64,000 nt of DNA from Roseibium porphyridii (GTDB taxonomy: Bacteria; Pseudomonadota; Alphaproteobacteria; Rhizobiales; Stappiaceae). The stretch covers positions 5,064,001 through 5,128,000 of the forward strand of contig NZ_CP120863.1 of assembly GCF_026191725.2 (NCBI RefSeq), given 5' to 3'. The position numbers and the translations under genes are program-made. Below, piece after piece: positions 15,550 to 24,177 of this stretch (position 1 is its first letter; each line of letters opens with the position of its first letter). Under the pieces are notes generated by a model. The model was not told the DNA's origin. It saw only the letters and a program-made list of their open reading frames with translations, and ran no database searches.

Positions 15550-15939
15550 TCATGTGGCCGCGACAGCTGCAAAGGTATCGGTCCAGGCTTCTTTCAGCTC
15601 CGGAGTGAAGGCGTCTCCCAAACCTATCTTGAGCGTATGAAGCAAGGCCTCTCCGACAGTGTCGTAGTGCTTGTCTTTGACACCATAGGAGACGTGTTTT
15701 TGTCCCAGATCCTTTAGCGTTGGCAGGACCGCTTCCAATCGATGCAGGTTGTTCACGGCGACGCTAAGAGTTTGCATCAGCTTTTCTTTTTGTCCGGACA
15801 TGTCTTGCGGAAACATTGAACGAAGTTCCGGAGCGATCTCGAACAGATGATTGTAAAAGATTTCAGCGGCCTCGTCGGCAATCGGGGCGACAAGCACAAA
15901 ACTGTTCTGGACGAGTTGGATTTTCTCTGGTGTCAGCAC
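15550..15939 (-). CDS. Single-domain bacterial haemoglobin (Vitreoscilla/flavohaemoglobin-like globin)
   Basis: 129 residues if started at GTG 15939 (LTPEKIQLVQNSF aligns with the start of Vitreoscilla haemoglobin); an in-frame GTG at 15999 would add 20 residues that do not resemble globin. Haem-pocket residues are visible: the CD1 Phe in RSMFPQDM, a candidate distal Gln in SGQKEKLMQ, and the proximal His in LGQKHVSYGV. The C-terminal reductase domain of flavohaemoglobins is absent. By family it binds oxygen or detoxifies NO. It sits two genes from the secreted cytochrome, but no shared operon is shown. Confidence 0.85.
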   Translation of the reverse strand: MLTPEKIQLVQNSFVLVAPIADEAAEIFYNHLFEIAPELRSMFPQDMSGQKEKLMQTLSVAVNNLHRLEAVLPTLKDLGQKHVSYGVKDKHYDTVGEALLHTLKIGLGDAFTPELKEAWTDTFAAVAAT

Positions 15940-16259
15940 TGGGTCATTTCTCGCCAAACATCCAAAGGCGACAAAGGCTTTTCGGTGCCAAGACTGCACA
16001 ACCTGCTTACGCCGAAGGTGATCTCCTCATTCGCTCAAGACATTGCCTTGGTCCTTTGTGTTTGGCAATGAAAAGGCGCAAACACCGACAGCTCTGGCTA
16101 TCCGCTCAAGGATCAGAACATTCTTGAAAGTGCGCTCTCACGAAACGAAGAGAGATGACAGACCTTGCCGCTTAAAGGCAGGCGGATGCCTTGTGCGCTC
16201 AGGAGAGAAATTTTCATTTTCTTCGAGCACCCGACAAAAAACCAGGTTCTCGAAAAAAC
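15940..16259. other. Non-coding gap
   Basis: 320 bases between the globin and cytochrome genes, both on the minus strand. I find no credible gene, strong terminator or operator; it presumably holds the globin promoter. Confidence 0.5.
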
Positions 16260-17708
16260 TCATTTTCGCGATTTCAAATAAGCGATCAATGCCGCCCGGT
16301 CTTCGGTCATTTTGTAGCCGTCAAAACCCATGACTGTTCCTGGAACCAGGTTTTTTGGAGACCGGAGAAATTCATCCAGTTGCTCCTCGCTCCATGTGCC
16401 CTCGGCCTTGGCGTATTTGAGCAGTGCTGGTGAATAGCGATCGAAGGCGGGGTCACTCGCGATCGGCTTGCCAACAACATCATCGAGAGAAGGGCCGACT
16501 GACTGTTGATTGCTGGATTTGTGGCAAAGTGCACATTGCGCAAAAAGCTGCCTTCCCCTCTCGACCGGATCTTCAATGCTAACGGCGTCGGTTTGAGCGG
16601 TATATTTCGCCCTCATTGCCAGCAACTCTGCGGACTGGGTCTCCGACAGACCGTTTCTGACATCCAACATCGCCATGGCTTGAGACCAGGTCATACTCGC
16701 CTCGATCTCCCCAATTTCAGCCCCAAGGTGCGCAACACGGGCCGTGTCGATACGTTGACCGGACAAGGAAGTTTCAAGAACTCGCATAAGCTGAGCTCTT
16801 ACGGTCAGGAATTCAGGAAATTCACGAGCATTATGCTGGGCAGCGTCCCGCAGCCGATCGATCTGGGAGGGGGTGAGCATTTCCATCACCTGCTTGGCAA
16901 CGGCCCCTCGCTTCACGCCATGGTTGGAATCTATTCGCAATGCCACAAAACCAAAATGCTGACTTGGTTTGCCGACGACTTCAAAATCGTTGAATTCCTG
17001 GGATCCAGTCGTCCAACTCAAGAATCTGGCTGAAACATTCACCAGCTCCTTTTTGTCCGCCTTTGAAAGTTTCTTCAATCTCAGGCTGCCTGCGCCGCTG
17101 CCCTGCTGAGCTTCTCCTGATACGTGTGCCACGCGAATGGCTGTCAGTGCCTGCTTCTGGTCGGTCGAAAGTGTTTGGGCAATGTCTCCAAACGTTTGCG
17201 CAAGCACACGTCCAAGTTCTGCTTCGTGTGACCCGTAATCGCGCCCGAGTTCAATGAAGCGCTCCTTGGTAACCGGTTCAAATGCGAGCAGTCCCTCCAA
17301 GGCACGGTTCATCTCATGGCGCGCTTGTTGCGCTTCTTTCAACGCGTCCATCTGGTCGTGTACCAGCGACACCATTGCAGCGCGCTGCCGCTCGTTCAAT
17401 ACGGACAATGTTTCTTGGGCGATCCGGCTTCGCTTGAGACTGTGCCGACTCGCAACCCTTAGCCCGACGAACCCGAAAAAATTGGCCAATCGGCCGACCG
17501 ATATATAGTCGTTGTTCGCCGAGTTTCCCGTCAGCCAAGTCAACGTTCTTGACGCGACAGCCTCTGTTAGTCGCCGTTCATCAACTTGAATTTTACTGAT
17601 GTCTCGCAGTGCTGCGCTTTCACCCGAGGCGGCAAAACCGGAGGGTGCAAACGATAGCGATTGAGCCAGAAGGCCAATAGACACAATTATTGCGGTGCTT
17701 TTTGACAT
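16260..17708 (-). CDS. Exported cytochrome c with two Spy/LTxxQ-like repeats
   Basis: 482 residues with a Sec signal peptide (about 1-27, ending GFAASGE). Residues about 46-193 and 220-367 are an internal duplication. Each copy has a block like LTWLTGNSANNDY / LSWTTGSQEFNDF, then FFGFVGLRV / HFGFVALRI, then a long amphipathic helical stretch with LNERQ, LSTDQ, LTPSQ and LSETQ, resembling Spy/CpxP LTxxQ helices. Residues about 383-482 form a class I cytochrome c domain with CALCH (392-396) and a likely axial Met in GTVMGF (460). It would lie in the periplasm. The combined role is unknown: perhaps a redox-linked sensor or chaperone. Confidence 0.8.
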   Translation of the reverse strand: MSKSTAIIVSIGLLAQSLSFAPSGFAASGESAALRDISKIQVDERRLTEAVASRTLTWLTGNSANNDYISVGRLANFFGFVGLRVASRHSLKRSRIAQETLSVLNERQRAAMVSLVHDQMDALKEAQQARHEMNRALEGLLAFEPVTKERFIELGRDYGSHEAELGRVLAQTFGDIAQTLSTDQKQALTAIRVAHVSGEAQQGSGAGSLRLKKLSKADKKELVNVSARFLSWTTGSQEFNDFEVVGKPSQHFGFVALRIDSNHGVKRGAVAKQVMEMLTPSQIDRLRDAAQHNAREFPEFLTVRAQLMRVLETSLSGQRIDTARVAHLGAEIGEIEASMTWSQAMAMLDVRNGLSETQSAELLAMRAKYTAQTDAVSIEDPVERGRQLFAQCALCHKSSNQQSVGPSLDDVVGKPIASDPAFDRYSPALLKYAKAEGTWSEEQLDEFLRSPKNLVPGTVMGFDGYKMTEDRAALIAYLKSRK

Positions 17709-18140: not shown

Positions 18141-18653
18141 TTAGTTGACCTTCAATTCCTTGAAGGATTTTTCAAAAGCTTCCTTGACCGGAGCAGAAAC
18201 GTCAGTGCCGAGTTTGGTGGCAAGATCCTGCATTTCCTTGGTCTGCGCGCTCATTGCATCGAACTGCTGGCGTGCGAAAGAAGACTGAAGCTCGATAGCC
18301 TCAGCAACGGTTTTCGCGGACATGATGTCTTTCACGAAAGTGAAAGCAGCATCAGCGTTGGCTTTAGCAGCGTCGACGGCTTTGTGATTGAATTCCACAA
18401 CACCCTGGCGAGACGTTTCGAATGTGTCTTCCATCAGGTCAGTTGCGTCTTCTGCAGCAGTTTTCACTTTTGCATATGCTTCACGTGCGTTTTCGATGCC
18501 CTTTTCAGTGGCTTCACGGAACGCAGCCGGAACTTCCATGTTAGGCATTGCGAAAGCTTCGAAATCCGGGAAAGCAACGCCGGCAGCCGGTGCAGCTTTG
18601 GCCTTGGCGGCACGTGATTTCGGAGCAGCTTTAGCTGTAGTCGTCTCAGTCAT
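18141..18653 (-). CDS. Phasin family protein (170 aa)
   Basis: ATG 18653 follows AGGAGATGAGATC. An Ala/Lys-rich, Thr-rich N-terminal tail (about 1-25) precedes the phasin helical domain, with PAAFREATEKGIENAREAYAK, then FNHKAVDAAKANADAAFTFVKD and IELQSSFARQQFDAMSAQTKEM, the typical amphipathic heptads. Phasins coat polyhydroxyalkanoate granules and control their number and size. No PHA synthase is in the window. Two TGCA-rich palindromic sites upstream fit PhaR control. A terminator follows. Confidence 0.92.
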   Translation of the reverse strand: MTETTTAKAAPKSRAAKAKAAPAAGVAFPDFEAFAMPNMEVPAAFREATEKGIENAREAYAKVKTAAEDATDLMEDTFETSRQGVVEFNHKAVDAAKANADAAFTFVKDIMSAKTVAEAIELQSSFARQQFDAMSAQTKEMQDLATKLGTDVSAPVKEAFEKSFKELKVN

Positions 18654-19020: not shown

Positions 19021-19407
19021 CTATTTTTTCTGTGCTGCCTTGGTGGCGTCCTGAACGGCCTTGGTGGCACTGTTGGAGAATTCGCGGGTCTGCTCGCCAA
19101 GTGTTTCCATCTGATTGCGCAGATAATCCTGCTGCAACTTCATCATGTCTTCGACATTGTCGGCTTTGACCAGATCCTGTGCGAATTTGAAGGCCGCAGT
19201 GACATGTTCCTCGGCGTAGGTCAGCGCCTTCTTGTTCACGTCAGCAGCGCCTGCCTGCATCGCGTTTGCACTGTCTTCCACATTGACGACGGCTTTTTGG
19301 GTAGCGCCCATGAAGTCATCAAATGCCTTGCGAGCTTGATCAACGCTCTTTTCGGCAAAATCGCGCATCTGTTCGGGGACTTCGAAACCGGTCTTGTCTG
19401 TGCTCAT
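19021..19407 (-). CDS. Phasin family protein (128 aa)
   Basis: The open frame extends to 19515, but ATG 19407 (MSTDKTGFEVPEQMRDFAEK) follows GAGGAG and starts the family-typical sequence. The whole protein is amphipathic helix: KSVDQARKAFDDFMGATQKAV, YAEEHVTAAFKFAQDLVKAD, LQQDYLRNQMETLGEQTREF. It lacks the Ala/Lys tail of the neighbouring phasin and is a diverged paralogue in the same orientation, 367 bases upstream. No TGCA palindrome is seen before this copy, so regulation may differ. Confidence 0.9.
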   Translation of the reverse strand: MSTDKTGFEVPEQMRDFAEKSVDQARKAFDDFMGATQKAVVNVEDSANAMQAGAADVNKKALTYAEEHVTAAFKFAQDLVKADNVEDMMKLQQDYLRNQMETLGEQTREFSNSATKAVQDATKAAQKK

Positions 19408-19674
19408 GTTTGCACTCCTCAGGTCGACGGAAGAAAATTCGGGTCGGGCTCGTTGAAGACGTTGCTTACCAAAAGTTCGTAACATGGCGATGGCAATCGG
19501 GCAAACGAGCAGCATTTCGGGTTAACCACGCCTTCATGTAAGCCCTTTAACAACATTGCTTTACATGGACGGCGTAGGCGATTGCTTGTATTAACGGAGT
19601 GTTTACCACTTGCGGCAAATCCGGCAGCCGCGTGCCCTGTCACCCGGTGTTGCAGACCAGTTTGGAGCTGAGCC

Positions 19675-22600
19675 ATGGACGGTACGACCCAATCATTCCT
19701 GGAACTGACAGCCAAGGATGATCTGGTCCAGCTCGTCGCCGACAAAAAAGCTGCCTGGCTTTGGTCGTCGGACGGCGCGCGCATTCTTTGGGCCAACGCG
19801 GCAGGTGCGTCGTTTTTCTCCGCGCACTCAATCAGCGACTTGAGAGGACTTGCATCCCTTGAGCGTTCACCGGCACGCCCTCACATCGCGCGCATCGCTG
19901 AAAGCGGTGCAACGGACAAGTTCAGCATCGACCGGCTTCGGTTCTACCGCGGGCTGAGGGTCATGCTGTTGACCTGCCAGTGCAAGAAGCTGGAGCTCGA
20001 CACCGGTGAGACTGCAGCCCTGATCGTTTGTGGCGACAAGGGCCTTATCACGACAAAGGATCCCGTTGACACGTTTGCCCAGATGATCGCGTCAAGTTCA
20101 ACAACCGCATTCGTAATGTCCGGTGACCAGATCGAACACCGCATTGGCACGCTGGAAGGCACCCCGGAAAACCCCGACTTACCGGACGGCCAAAATGCGG
20201 TTTTCGGACCATTGAAGATGAATGACGGACTGCATGAAGGTGCCGCTCTCGATCTGGACACCGGTCAGAAACTGATCGTCCTCGGAGATACGCCGCTGAT
20301 CGATGACGGATCAGAGGTCGATGAGCCTGAACTTGAGACCGTTTCTGGGGGAGCGCTCTTGGCTGCAGGAGCTGGCGCAGCTGCGCTTGCCGCGAGTTCG
20401 GCGTCAACGCCGCAAACCGATGACGATTTGGCCATCGATGATGAAGAGCCTTCTCAAGCTGACCAGGAAAGCGAAAACACGCTACCGGATTCAGATACTG
20501 ACGATAATCACAACACAGAGGCTGAAAACAACGCATCTGCATGGGTGAGGGCCGACGCTGAAGAAGTCGACACGAACGCAGATAGCGCCGATTTCGAGCT
20601 GGAAACACCCGCTGACGATGCTATCGCAATGGCCGAACCTGGCGAGCCACCAGCCGAGGCAACCGAAAGTGCGAGCGGGGCTGATCACGCGGAAGATGAC
20701 GGCCCCGGTAGCGATACTATCGCGGCTACCGCAGAACCTGAGCATGAAGACATTGAGGACAGCTCTGAGGACTCCGGGGAATTTGTGTTTCAGCCGCTCC
20801 GGCGACCGGTACGCTTTGCCTGGAAGATGGACATCGAGCAGCGCTTTACATTCCTCTCCGATGAGTTTGCCGACGTCTTGGGTCCGGGCGCGACAGACAT
20901 TGTCGGCAAAACGTGGGCTGAAGTCGCCGGCGCATTCGATCTTGACCCACGTGGTCAGATTTCGAGAGCCCTCGACCGACGCGACACCTGGAGCGGGAAA
21001 ACCGTCGACTGGCCTGTGACCGGAGCGGCATTGCGCGTTCCCGTTGACATGGCCGCCCTGCCCGCTTTTGACAGAAATCGGAAGTTTGAGGGTTATCGCG
21101 GGTTTGGTGTTTGCCGGTCAGCCGACGCGGTTCAAGACCAGAACGGTTTGGTTGTTGCCGCAGCCGGAGCCTTACTTGCAGGCGATGCAAGCGACTTCGA
21201 AGATGAGACAGCTGCCGACGTCGCCGACACGGATGAATTCGTCGAGGACGCGGCAGACAGCAGTCAAGATGCGATCTCTGCATCAAATGAAGAAACCATT
21301 GCGGACACATATGCAGAGGTTTCTGACGACAGCACTGAAATTGTCGGTGGAGACATTCCGGAAGAAACCGGCGACTTTCCACCTTCAAGTGAAGAAGTGG
21401 AACTGGAAGCTCACACAGATCCACAAGTTGACGAGAACCCAGATACTCGCGGACAGGACAGCGAAGATCTGGATACCGTGGAAGAAGGTACTGCTGCAGA
21501 GGACACGGCGTCGAAATCTGAACCTGACGACCTGCAGGATTTGAAACCGGCGCAGCCCGATACCTTTGCCGGCAAAACTTTTCTTGGTGCGAGCGCGGCT
21601 GCGCTTGTTGGTTCGCTGGCAAAATTTACCGGCAAGTCTCACAAGGAAACGGCTGAAGAGCCGACAACTCCACCGGAGCCTGACAATTCAGATGAAATGA
21701 CCGACACCCCGCTCTCCCTGACTGAGGAGTTGCAGCAGGTGGCCGCGGCATTGGATGAGGGCGACGCGCAAGGAACTGAGGCGGACGCGACTGACGCCGG
21801 TTTGGTTGAGGACGCAAATTTGGAAGGCGCTGCGTCCTCTTCCGACACTGAAGACGACATCAGTGACACAACCGACTTTGATGCCCCTCTCGACGACGAT
21901 GACGACAACGCAGAGGCGGAAGTGCCTGATGATCAATCAGCTGAGGACAGTCTCTCAACCGCAACCGATGCCATTGATGAAGATGACGGTGACACCGCCG
22001 AGTTGGACGCTCAGACCAATGACGAAGCATCTCCGGAACAAAAGATAGAAAACGAAGAAAGCCGGAGCGAGGCTGGCACCGAAGTTCTGGACGAAGAGCC
22101 GGTTGGCATTTCCGGACCTGCGGCCCTCAAACCGGCCGAAATCGAAAGCGCTGTAAAATCGTTGGCAAAAACCTACAAAGCCAACGAAAAATCAACGGCC
22201 GACCTTTTTGACGATGGCGACGCGGACGCCAAGACGCCCGGCGAGCAGCAAGAGACGAGCCGGGAGCAAGACAACGATAACGGAGACGCGCTGAGCGACG
22301 ACACCGATGCGTTGGAAATCGCTGCCGAAGACGACGCTGAGCAAAGCGACACCGACGAGCAGGATTTCTTTGAAGAAACGGCGGCGTTCGAGCAGGAAGA
22401 CAAGGCAGCTGAGGCCGACGGCGATGACGAACCGGAGCCGAAGCCGGAAAAAACCGGTGAAGTCATTCCGCTCGCAACCGTGAAACCTCGCGTGGTGCCG
22501 GTTGACACATCTGGTCTTTCGCGTCCTGAACGCCAGGCATTCCGCAAGATCGCGGAAGCACTCGGTGCGCGGCTTGAAGGCGACCTCGGAGACTTTGACG

Positions 22601-24177
22601 AGCCGGATCCCGTTGAAGAGCCTGAAGAAGAGCTGCCGCCCGACCTGCCTGAAGCCGGACCAATCGATCCCAGTCTCCTGGACCGATTGCCAATCGGCAT
22701 TTCTATCGTGCATGAGCGCGAGGTGCTTTATGCCAACAAGGCTCTTCTGACCATGATCGGCTACAAGACGACTGCAGCTCTGTCGGAAGCCGGCGGTCTG
22801 GAAGCGCTTTTCATTGACGACACCGAAGAACTGCCGGATGCGGAGGGCATGGACGGCGAAGTCGATGAGGCAATGAAGCTTCGTCTTGCCGATGGCGGCG
22901 TTCTGAATGTCGATGCTCACATGCATTCTGTTCCCTGGAACGGAAGCTATGGTCTGATGATCTCGATTACCGAACGTCCAATGAAGGCAACACTGCCTGC
23001 CGCGGCACCGACATCACCCAACTTCTTTGCCGAAGTGCGCGGCGAACTCGACACGGCCCGGAACCAGATTGCCGAGATGGATACCATCCTGGAAACGGCA
23101 ACCGACGGCGTGCTTGTGCTTGATCAGCACGGGACTATCCTCAAGGTCAATGGTTCAGCTGAGGCGCTTTTCAGCGCAAACCGCGCAGACATGATTGGTG
23201 CTCCCTTTACCGAGTTTCTGGCACCGGAAAGCCATCGGGCGGCCGCGGACTATCTGGACGGGCTGTCGCGAAACGGTGTTGCCAGCATTCTCAATGACGG
23301 CCGTGAAGTGCTTGGCAAAGTGCCCAGCGGAGGTCTGATCCCGCTCTTCATGACCATGGGCCGCATCACGAACGGTCAGGATGAAGCAAAGTATTGTGCG
23401 GTACTCCGCGACATAACCCAATGGAAAACGGCTGAAGAAGAGCTGACGCAGGCCAAGCGACAGGCCGAAGACGCAAGCTCTGCCAAGTCCGACTTTCTGG
23501 CAAAGATCAGCCATGAAATACGGACGCCCCTGAACGCGATCATCGGGTTTTCCGAAGTGATGATGGAAGAGCGTTTCGGCGCTATCGGAAACGACCGCTA
23601 CAAGGACTACCTGAAGGACATTCGAACATCCGGTTCTCACATCATGAGCCTGATCAACGATCTGCTGGATCTTTCCAAGATCGAGGCGGGCAAGCTGGAT
23701 TTGAAGTTCACGGCCGTTTCGACAAACGATGTGGTCAATGAGTGCGTGGCGCTGATGCAGCCACAGGCCAACCGGGAGAAGGTTATCATAAGGGCAAGCC
23801 TACCGGACTCGGTTCCAGAGGTCGTTGCCGATCCGCGCTCCCTGCGGCAGATCGTTCTCAACTTGCTGTCGAATGCCATCAAGTACAACAAGTCCAGCGG
23901 ACAGGTCATTTTGTCGACGGCGCTAGAAAGCAATGGTGAAGTTGCCTTGCGTGTACGCGACACCGGTACGGGCATGACGGCAAAGCAGCTTGCTGCGGCG
24001 CTTGAACCCTTCCGGCAACTGCACACAGCCAGCCGCGGTGGCGGCACAGGACTGGGTCTTCCTCTGACCAAGGCGCTGGTCGAGGCCAACCGTGCAAGCT
24101 TCCATATCGATTCCACACCTGACCAGGGTACATTGGTGGAAATCATTTTCCCGACGCAACGGGTCCTGTCGGAATAG
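19675..24177 (+). CDS. Large multi-PAS histidine kinase with long acidic linkers (PdhS/PleC/DivJ-like core)
   Basis: 1500 residues, no evident transmembrane helix. Order: N-terminal PAS-like domain (about 10-125, with AAWLWSSDGARILWANAAGA); acidic low-complexity linker (about 210-375); second PAS (about 378-485); a very long acidic linker (about 500-970) of Asp/Glu/Ala/Thr with short Ala-rich hydrophobic patches such as GASAAALVGSLAKF; third PAS (about 1004-1105); fourth PAS (about 1137-1255); HisKA with phospho-acceptor His1280 in ISHEIRTPLNAIIGFSEVM; HATPase with N-box NLLSNAIKYNK and G-box GGGTGLGLPL. The kinase core resembles the DivK-partner kinases of alphaproteobacterial cell-cycle control. 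No response regulator is adjacent. Confidence 0.85.
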   Translation: MDGTTQSFLELTAKDDLVQLVADKKAAWLWSSDGARILWANAAGASFFSAHSISDLRGLASLERSPARPHIARIAESGATDKFSIDRLRFYRGLRVMLLTCQCKKLELDTGETAALIVCGDKGLITTKDPVDTFAQMIASSSTTAFVMSGDQIEHRIGTLEGTPENPDLPDGQNAVFGPLKMNDGLHEGAALDLDTGQKLIVLGDTPLIDDGSEVDEPELETVSGGALLAAGAGAAALAASSASTPQTDDDLAIDDEEPSQADQESENTLPDSDTDDNHNTEAENNASAWVRADAEEVDTNADSADFELETPADDAIAMAEPGEPPAEATESASGADHAEDDGPGSDTIAATAEPEHEDIEDSSEDSGEFVFQPLRRPVRFAWKMDIEQRFTFLSDEFADVLGPGATDIVGKTWAEVAGAFDLDPRGQISRALDRRDTWSGKTVDWPVTGAALRVPVDMAALPAFDRNRKFEGYRGFGVCRSADAVQDQNGLVVAAAGALLAGDASDFEDETAADVADTDEFVEDAADSSQDAISASNEETIADTYAEVSDDSTEIVGGDIPEETGDFPPSSEEVELEAHTDPQVDENPDTRGQDSEDLDTVEEGTAAEDTASKSEPDDLQDLKPAQPDTFAGKTFLGASAAALVGSLAKFTGKSHKETAEEPTTPPEPDNSDEMTDTPLSLTEELQQVAAALDEGDAQGTEADATDAGLVEDANLEGAASSSDTEDDISDTTDFDAPLDDDDDNAEAEVPDDQSAEDSLSTATDAIDEDDGDTAELDAQTNDEASPEQKIENEESRSEAGTEVLDEEPVGISGPAALKPAEIESAVKSLAKTYKANEKSTADLFDDGDADAKTPGEQQETSREQDNDNGDALSDDTDALEIAAEDDAEQSDTDEQDFFEETAAFEQEDKAAEADGDDEPEPKPEKTGEVIPLATVKPRVVPVDTSGLSRPERQAFRKIAEALGARLEGDLGDFDEPDPVEEPEEELPPDLPEAGPIDPSLLDRLPIGISIVHEREVLYANKALLTMIGYKTTAALSEAGGLEALFIDDTEELPDAEGMDGEVDEAMKLRLADGGVLNVDAHMHSVPWNGSYGLMISITERPMKATLPAAAPTSPNFFAEVRGELDTARNQIAEMDTILETATDGVLVLDQHGTILKVNGSAEALFSANRADMIGAPFTEFLAPESHRAAADYLDGLSRNGVASILNDGREVLGKVPSGGLIPLFMTMGRITNGQDEAKYCAVLRDITQWKTAEEELTQAKRQAEDASSAKSDFLAKISHEIRTPLNAIIGFSEVMMEERFGAIGNDRYKDYLKDIRTSGSHIMSLINDLLDLSKIEAGKLDLKFTAVSTNDVVNECVALMQPQANREKVIIRASLPDSVPEVVADPRSLRQIVLNLLSNAIKYNKSSGQVILSTALESNGEVALRVRDTGTGMTAKQLAAALEPFRQLHTASRGGGTGLGLPLTKALVEANRASFHIDSTPDQGTLVEIIFPTQRVLSE

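What the first reader, a model, noticed from the sequence alone, without database searches (positions are those of the whole stretch)
16260..17708. Exported cytochrome c fused to two Spy/LTxxQ-like repeats
The 482-residue protein has a signal peptide, two about 148-residue repeats and a C-terminal haem domain (CALCH, Met in GTVMGF). The repeats share unusual motifs (LTWLTG / LSWTTG and FFGFVGLRV / HFGFVALRI) followed by helical segments with LTxxQ-like phrases (LSTDQ, LTPSQ, LSETQ) as in the periplasmic chaperones Spy/CpxP. I know of no named family with this arrangement. The gene could link redox state to periplasmic stress sensing or to metal/protein binding.
Basis: partly seen in the sequence, partly recalled or inferred. 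Interest (0 to 1): 0.7.

Follow-up and report, generated by a model that had tools for sequence, protein, structure and literature searches.

The report
Cytochrome c with twin Spy-like repeats
This exported bacterial protein joins two copies of a helical, Spy-like module to an electron-carrying cytochrome c; it belongs to a rare, strongly conserved family without a name in the libraries searched, and might link protection of the cell envelope to respiration.

Summary
The repeats are Spy/CpxP-superfamily-like rather than Spy: Pfam Metal_resist falls just under its cut-off here but passes in some relatives, LxxxQ phrases sit at matching places, and each repeat has an extra conserved ~50-residue cap. 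Direct tests against E. coli Spy, CpxP and ZraP were not significant; fold searches of the repeats were inconclusive. One search found 145 homologues; CxxCH and the haem Met are invariant in the 114 aligned. The gene is rare (5 of 45 genomes of its genus; 1 of 337 of its class), scattered, and under purifying selection. The globin neighbour looks incidental. A larger haem-free sister family (3536 hits) lies beside a histidine kinase in 4 of 5 full-length loci read; in one Vibrio a cytochrome member directly follows such a cluster. Best reading: a respiration-linked, two-lobed periplasmic binding or chaperone-like protein; function untested.

The parts
16260..17708 (-). whole gene, 482 aa, cytochrome c with two Spy-like repeats
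   Evidence: purifying selection
17631..17708 (-). signal peptide, residues 1 to about 26
   Evidence: read by eye from the sequence; no predictor was run
17433..17579 (-). repeat 1 cap, residues 44-92
   Evidence: conserved in alignment
17115..17432 (-). repeat 1 helical part, residues 93-198, Metal_resist-like, LNERQ and LSTDQ
   Evidence: Pfam 97-187, 27.6 bits, cut-off 29.2; model helices
17058..17114 (-). linker, residues 199-217
   Evidence: model confidence drops near residues 201-210
16911..17057 (-). repeat 2 cap, residues 218-266, with NDFEVVGKPSQHFGFV
   Evidence: near-invariant block
16593..16910 (-). repeat 2 helical part, residues 267-372, LTPSQ and LSETQ
   Evidence: gap-free alignment to repeat 1; model helices
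16266..16571 (-). class I cytochrome c domain, residues 380-481
16521..16535 (-). haem attachment motif CALCH, residues 392-396
16329..16331 (-). Met460, presumed second haem ligand
   Evidence: invariant in 114 rows; ligand role inferred from cytochrome c homology

Best explanation
An exported, soluble, two-lobed binding protein of the Spy/Metal_resist type with its own electron-transfer domain. Shown by sequence: tandem repeats each made of a conserved cap plus a Spy-like helical part, a class I cytochrome c domain with both expected haem ligands, and purifying selection; the signal peptide is read by eye. Inferred: the two repeats act as a covalent pseudo-dimer, where Spy uses two identical chains, and hold a client protein or small ligand; the c552-like haem exchanges electrons with the periplasmic respiratory chain, so that holding, repairing or sensing the bound partner depends on redox state. 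The stress-related setting is inferred from the sister family, which lies beside two-component systems.
For: Gap-free repeats; Pfam Metal_resist and LTXXQ in family members; confident model whose repeat 2 shows short-long-long-short helices after the cap; haem domain close to c552 electron carriers, including the native acceptor of an arsenite oxidase; haem ligands invariant in 114 rows; dN/dS 0.089-0.156 in four comparisons. Sister family: kinase neighbour in 4 of 5 full-length loci, one kinase closest to BaeS; a cytochrome member 137 bases after the kinase of such a cluster in L022. Spy is a four-helix, two-chain cradle (PMC8144458, passages) and is induced through BaeSR under chlorite (PMC12503329, abstract).
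Against: No direct detectable kinship with E. coli Spy, CpxP or ZraP; Foldseek and VIA did not list a Spy-type structure for the repeats in the rows shown; the window protein itself is under both Pfam cut-offs; the gene stands without a regulator beside it in the window and in most loci read; the caps are more conserved than a loosely selective chaperone would need; a cytochrome-less member exists (P0097).
Confidence: 0.4

Rival explanations
1. A metal-handling redox protein: the repeats bind a metal, as some proteins of the Metal_resist group do (CnrX and ZraP, recalled), and the cytochrome removes or supplies an electron, so it acts as a metal oxidase or redox-sensitive metal sensor.
For: Metal_resist is the best Pfam match of the repeats; conserved D241, E243, H251, H263, E336, M308, M339 and M347 in repeat 2; in L022 and L068 the sister's regulator and kinase are nearest to the heavy-metal models cztR_silR_copR and cztS_silS_copS.
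Against: Those regulator and kinase scores are below the curated cut-offs; conserved Cys occur only in the haem motif; repeat 1 lacks the His of repeat 2; no metal-resistance genes were recognised beside the gene in the window.
Confidence: 0.25
2. A dedicated electron carrier whose repeats are only a docking scaffold for one specific redox partner, with no chaperone or sensing role.
For: Strongly conserved caps (33 of the 44 invariant columns lie in residues 93-362); c552-type haem domain.
Against: No partner gene accompanies it across the loci read; the haem-free sister family keeps both repeats; a haem-less member exists (P0097).
Confidence: 0.2
3. A Spy-like holdase to which a cytochrome happens to be fused, the haem being dispensable.
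For: P0097 on a 1.34 Mb contig ends before the haem domain; the large sister family lacks haem.
Against: 115 of the 120 listed homologues keep CxxCH; haem ligands invariant in 114 rows; the haem domain is constrained (dN/dS 0.09-0.18 in the three pairs measurable).
Confidence: 0.1
4. A decaying or cargo gene without function.
For: Scattered presence; different surroundings in related genomes; one Vibrio-like copy has an internal stop.
Against: Low dN/dS in four comparisons and many invariant positions at 49-87% identity.
Confidence: 0.03

Closest known systems
Pfam PF13801 Metal_resist and PF07813 LTXXQ (the Spy/CpxP/ZraP/CnrX group; that grouping is recalled)
   Same: Helical part of each repeat, LxxxQ phrases at matching places; some members pass the cut-offs
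   Different: Window protein under both cut-offs; two repeats in one chain; an extra ~50-residue cap per repeat; fused cytochrome c; no significant match to E. coli Spy, CpxP or ZraP
Unnamed haem-free sister family (P0121, P0122, P0123 and others; some carry the source name Spy/CpxP family protein refolding chaperone)
   Same: Homologous over both repeats: 22% identity over 350 residues, E 4e-19; hhalign 99%; shared cap and LxxxQ positions
   Different: No CxxCH in the 122 sister proteins checked; repeat 2 carries YFCPERHG in place of VVGKPSQH; found with two-component genes, metallophosphoesterases and PEBP domains
Cytochrome c552 of Paracoccus and related class I cytochromes
   Different: Those are small carriers or membrane-anchored domains; here the domain is the C-terminus of a two-repeat protein

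Membership tests
Spy/CpxP (PF07813 LTXXQ) and PF13801 Metal_resist | Score of the window protein over Pfam's curated cut-off | tested here: not met
   Metal_resist 27.6 against 29.2; LTXXQ 11.4 against 24.3. So it is not filed as a member; 4 of 7 relatives scanned do pass one or both
Spy/CpxP (PF07813 LTXXQ) and PF13801 Metal_resist | Two LTxxQ-like phrases per domain at fixed places | tested here: met
   104-108, 180-184, 278-282, 354-358; Q108 and Q184 equivalents conserved across both repeats and the sister family
Spy/CpxP (PF07813 LTXXQ) and PF13801 Metal_resist | Detectable sequence kinship with E. coli Spy, CpxP or ZraP | tested here: not met
   HMM of helical parts: only shuffles in the rows shown; hhalign at best 33% probability over 31 columns
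Spy/CpxP (PF07813 LTXXQ) and PF13801 Metal_resist | Spy-type four-helix fold in three dimensions | tested here: inconclusive
   Helix order fits in repeat 2, repeat 1 with a split long helix; Foldseek and VIA did not list Spy in the rows shown
Spy/CpxP (PF07813 LTXXQ) and PF13801 Metal_resist | Chaperone activity or stress induction | not testable with these tools
   Needs bench work
Class I cytochrome c | PF00034 over cut-off, CxxCH, downstream Met | tested here: met
   29.9 against 21.3 bits; C392, C395, H396, M460 invariant in 114 rows
Class I cytochrome c | Haem actually bound and redox active | not testable with these tools
   Needs haem stain and spectroscopy

The most novel reading that the evidence does not exclude
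A redox-powered periplasmic chaperone or sensor: the fused cytochrome draws on respiration to keep the cradle, or the client or metal held in it, in the right redox state, so that one polypeptide does what in E. coli takes Spy plus a separate repair system (MsrPQ repairs oxidised Spy: PMC12503329, abstract only). The large unnamed sister family would be its haem-free counterpart, tied to two-component envelope-stress control.
Probability: 0.18. Interest if true: 0.8.

Novelty: new variant of a known kind. Interest (0 to 1): 0.5.

Why it matters
If right, a periplasmic, ATP-free helper protein is wired directly to the respiratory chain, an arrangement I did not meet in the papers searched. It also points to a large unnamed family (at least 3536 hits) with near-invariant motifs, whose neighbours in the few loci read suggest envelope or metal signalling, and which can be tested in ordinary marine isolates.

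Tried and rejected
Globin link: the globin occurs in 19 of 45 genomes of the genus at E<=1e-20, but beside this gene in only two of the five genomes that hold it, the window's own and the same-species one. Set aside as incidental.

Plasmid search with the full protein: 358 records with a match, none covering 80% of the query; of the 30 rows listed the first is the Chlorohelix sister protein, and the matches of the others reach into the haem domain. IMG/VR scans with the window-family and sister alignments confirmed no relative.

Direct tests against E. coli Spy, CpxP and ZraP were not significant. One weak point in favour: the hhalign match of repeat 1 to Spy (1.5% probability) starts at LNERQ on LTDAQ, in the expected register.

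Single-repeat relatives: a 10-row repeat alignment returned 304 proteins at E<=1e-4, 120 listed, mostly on short contigs; I saw no named single-repeat protein among them.

Literature: nine searches ran; three returned nothing. From titles and starts of abstracts I recognised no paper on a cytochrome c / Spy-like fusion or on the sister family. The library holds open-licence PMC papers only.

Full report
WHAT IS THERE. The ORF at 16260..17708 lies on the minus strand and encodes 482 aa. By eye, residues 1 to about 26 are a Sec signal peptide. Two repeats follow, then a cytochrome c domain (PF00034 at 382-481, 29.9 bits against a cut-off of 21.3). The repeats align without a gap over 147 residues (29% identity, E 7e-20; local score 176, maximum of 2000 shuffles 60; hhalign 99.8%).

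THE FAMILY. Residues 25-375 find 145 proteins at E<=0.001 among 7996 candidates scored; 120 are listed. Five of these 120 lack CxxCH: P0118 is short; P0115 is a record marked partial; P0029 looks frame-shifted at its end; P0007 ends before the haem domain on a 3.4 kb contig; P0097 ends before it on a 1.34 Mb contig. I aligned 114 of the 120, leaving out these five and, by oversight, P0117. In that alignment 44 columns are invariant, 33 of them between residues 93 and 362, and C392, C395, H396 and M460 among the rest. Named sources include Roseibium, Vibrio, Cognatiyoonia and MAGs. Pfam on 100 of the 114 at E<=0.001: Cytochrom_C 80, Metal_resist 38, LTXXQ 32. NCBIfam has no model for the whole; its best hit is a cytochrome c-550 domain at 40.4 bits against a cut-off of 240.

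DISTRIBUTION. Matches over the repeats, the centre genome counted: 3 of 61 relatives, 2 of 398 drawn from the phylum, 7 of 196 from the genus of G286, one with an internal TGA, 5 of 45 from the window's genus (the five full-length rows; all 45 match if cytochrome-only hits are counted), and 1 of 337 from the class. Neighbours differ: in the window the gene lies 164 bases after tRNA-His and 260 bases before a globin; in G023 it is beside hyp-type genes and in L007 beside transposase-like frames, both read by eye. In the 11 cases compared, the gene's GC content is within about 2.3 points of its surroundings. The tree puts the four named Roseibium rows in one group with two unnamed rows inside it (100/100); the Vibrio rows are weakly resolved. 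This reads as a scattered accessory gene; transfer is likely but was not demonstrated.

SELECTION. dN/dS against four relatives: 0.156 (G644, very close), 0.114 (G009), 0.089 (G023), 0.113 (G648). The repeats (0.07-0.12) and the haem domain (0.09-0.18 in three pairs; not measurable for G644) are both constrained. dS exceeds 1 for two pairs and is rough there.

SISTER FAMILY. A neighbour in Vibrio-like locus L022 turned out to be a haem-free homologue (P0121; 22% identity over 350 residues, E 4e-19). It has 3536 relatives at E<=0.001 among 7999 scored, a lower bound; none of the 122 sister proteins checked has CxxCH. Repeat 1 keeps PPGKVSDYFGFQYMRD and repeat 2 YFCPERHG.YFGGF.MK. One listed member is fused to a PEBP domain (P0176), and P0246 appears to be (by eye). 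Full-length loci read: L009 (Chlorohelix plasmid) regulator, kinase, sister, PEBP, two metallophosphoesterases; L022 sister, metallophosphoesterase, regulator, kinase, then the cytochrome member, all on one strand with gaps of 72, 89, 10 and 137 bases; L068 regulator, kinase, sister, the first two frames shorter than their models; L072 sister, a kinase closest to BaeS (398.5 bits against a cut-off of 500), then a regulator frame by eye; L067 no kinase on its 7.7 kb contig. So 4 of 5 have a kinase neighbour; two partial matches (L069, L073) were not counted. Nearest NCBIfam models: cop/sil/czt in L022 and L068, PhoB- and WalK-like in L009, all below cut-off. I take L022 as Vibrio hippocampi because P0123, named so, is 100% identical to P0121 and its longest contig has the length of the contig of L022. 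In the other six loci of that genus I recognised no adjacent regulator-kinase pair, reading only the first residues of neighbours; L026 has a large membrane-sensor-like frame nearby that was not scanned.

IS IT SPY? It may work like a Spy-type protein; I do not file it as one. The window protein is under both Pfam cut-offs, 4 of 7 relatives scanned pass one or both, and E. coli Spy, CpxP and ZraP are not detectably related by the tests run. Structure comparison of the repeats was inconclusive. One viral model, A0A1C9C581 of Heterosigma akashiwo virus 01, matched with probability 1.00, E 4e-3 and TM 0.68 by target length; its sequence was not examined.

MECHANISM. Spy is a two-chain cradle of four-helix monomers (PMC8144458, passages). 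Under chlorite stress it is raised through BaeSR, and its oxidised methionines are repaired by MsrPQ (PMC12503329, abstract). By analogy I infer a covalent pseudo-dimer that binds a client or ligand and is coupled to respiration through the c552-like haem. Repeats, haem-ligand residues and selection are shown; the pseudo-dimer, bound partner, electron route and stress regulation are inferred. Metal binding and partner docking are serious rivals.

NOVELTY. Known parts in an arrangement for which Pfam, NCBIfam and nine literature searches gave me no name. I rate it a new variant of a known kind, of moderate interest, raised by the unnamed sister family.

Noticed in passing
L022 14508-15815 (-), and the sister family at large: A large haem-free family of two-repeat proteins (3536 hits) with near-invariant PPGKVSDYFGFQYMRD and YFCPERHG motifs; kinase neighbours in 4 of 5 full-length loci read, phosphoesterases in two of these, PEBP fusions or neighbours in some.
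   Followed up: partly
BFVD entry A0A1C9C581 (no locus): An uncharacterised 220-aa protein of an algal virus (Heterosigma akashiwo virus 01) is the only convincing structural match to the repeats-only model among the rows shown (probability 1.00, TM 0.68 by target length).
   Followed up: no
L067 493-3027 (+): An 844-aa sister protein that seems to carry extra N-terminal Ig-like domains and a C-terminal PEBP-like domain (by eye).
   Followed up: no
window 18141-18653 and 19021-19515 (-): Two phasin genes (Phasin_2) in a row upstream of tRNA-His.
   Followed up: no
window 15550-15999 (-): A single-domain globin (Globin, 66.8 bits), patchy in the genus (19 of 45 genomes).
   Followed up: partly
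window 19675-24177 (+): A 1500-aa ORF with long acidic stretches and, by eye, a histidine-kinase-like C-terminus.
   Followed up: no
L026 408-1817 (-): A family member in a Vibrio-like genome (G594) with an internal TGA in its frame, probably a decaying copy.
   Followed up: no
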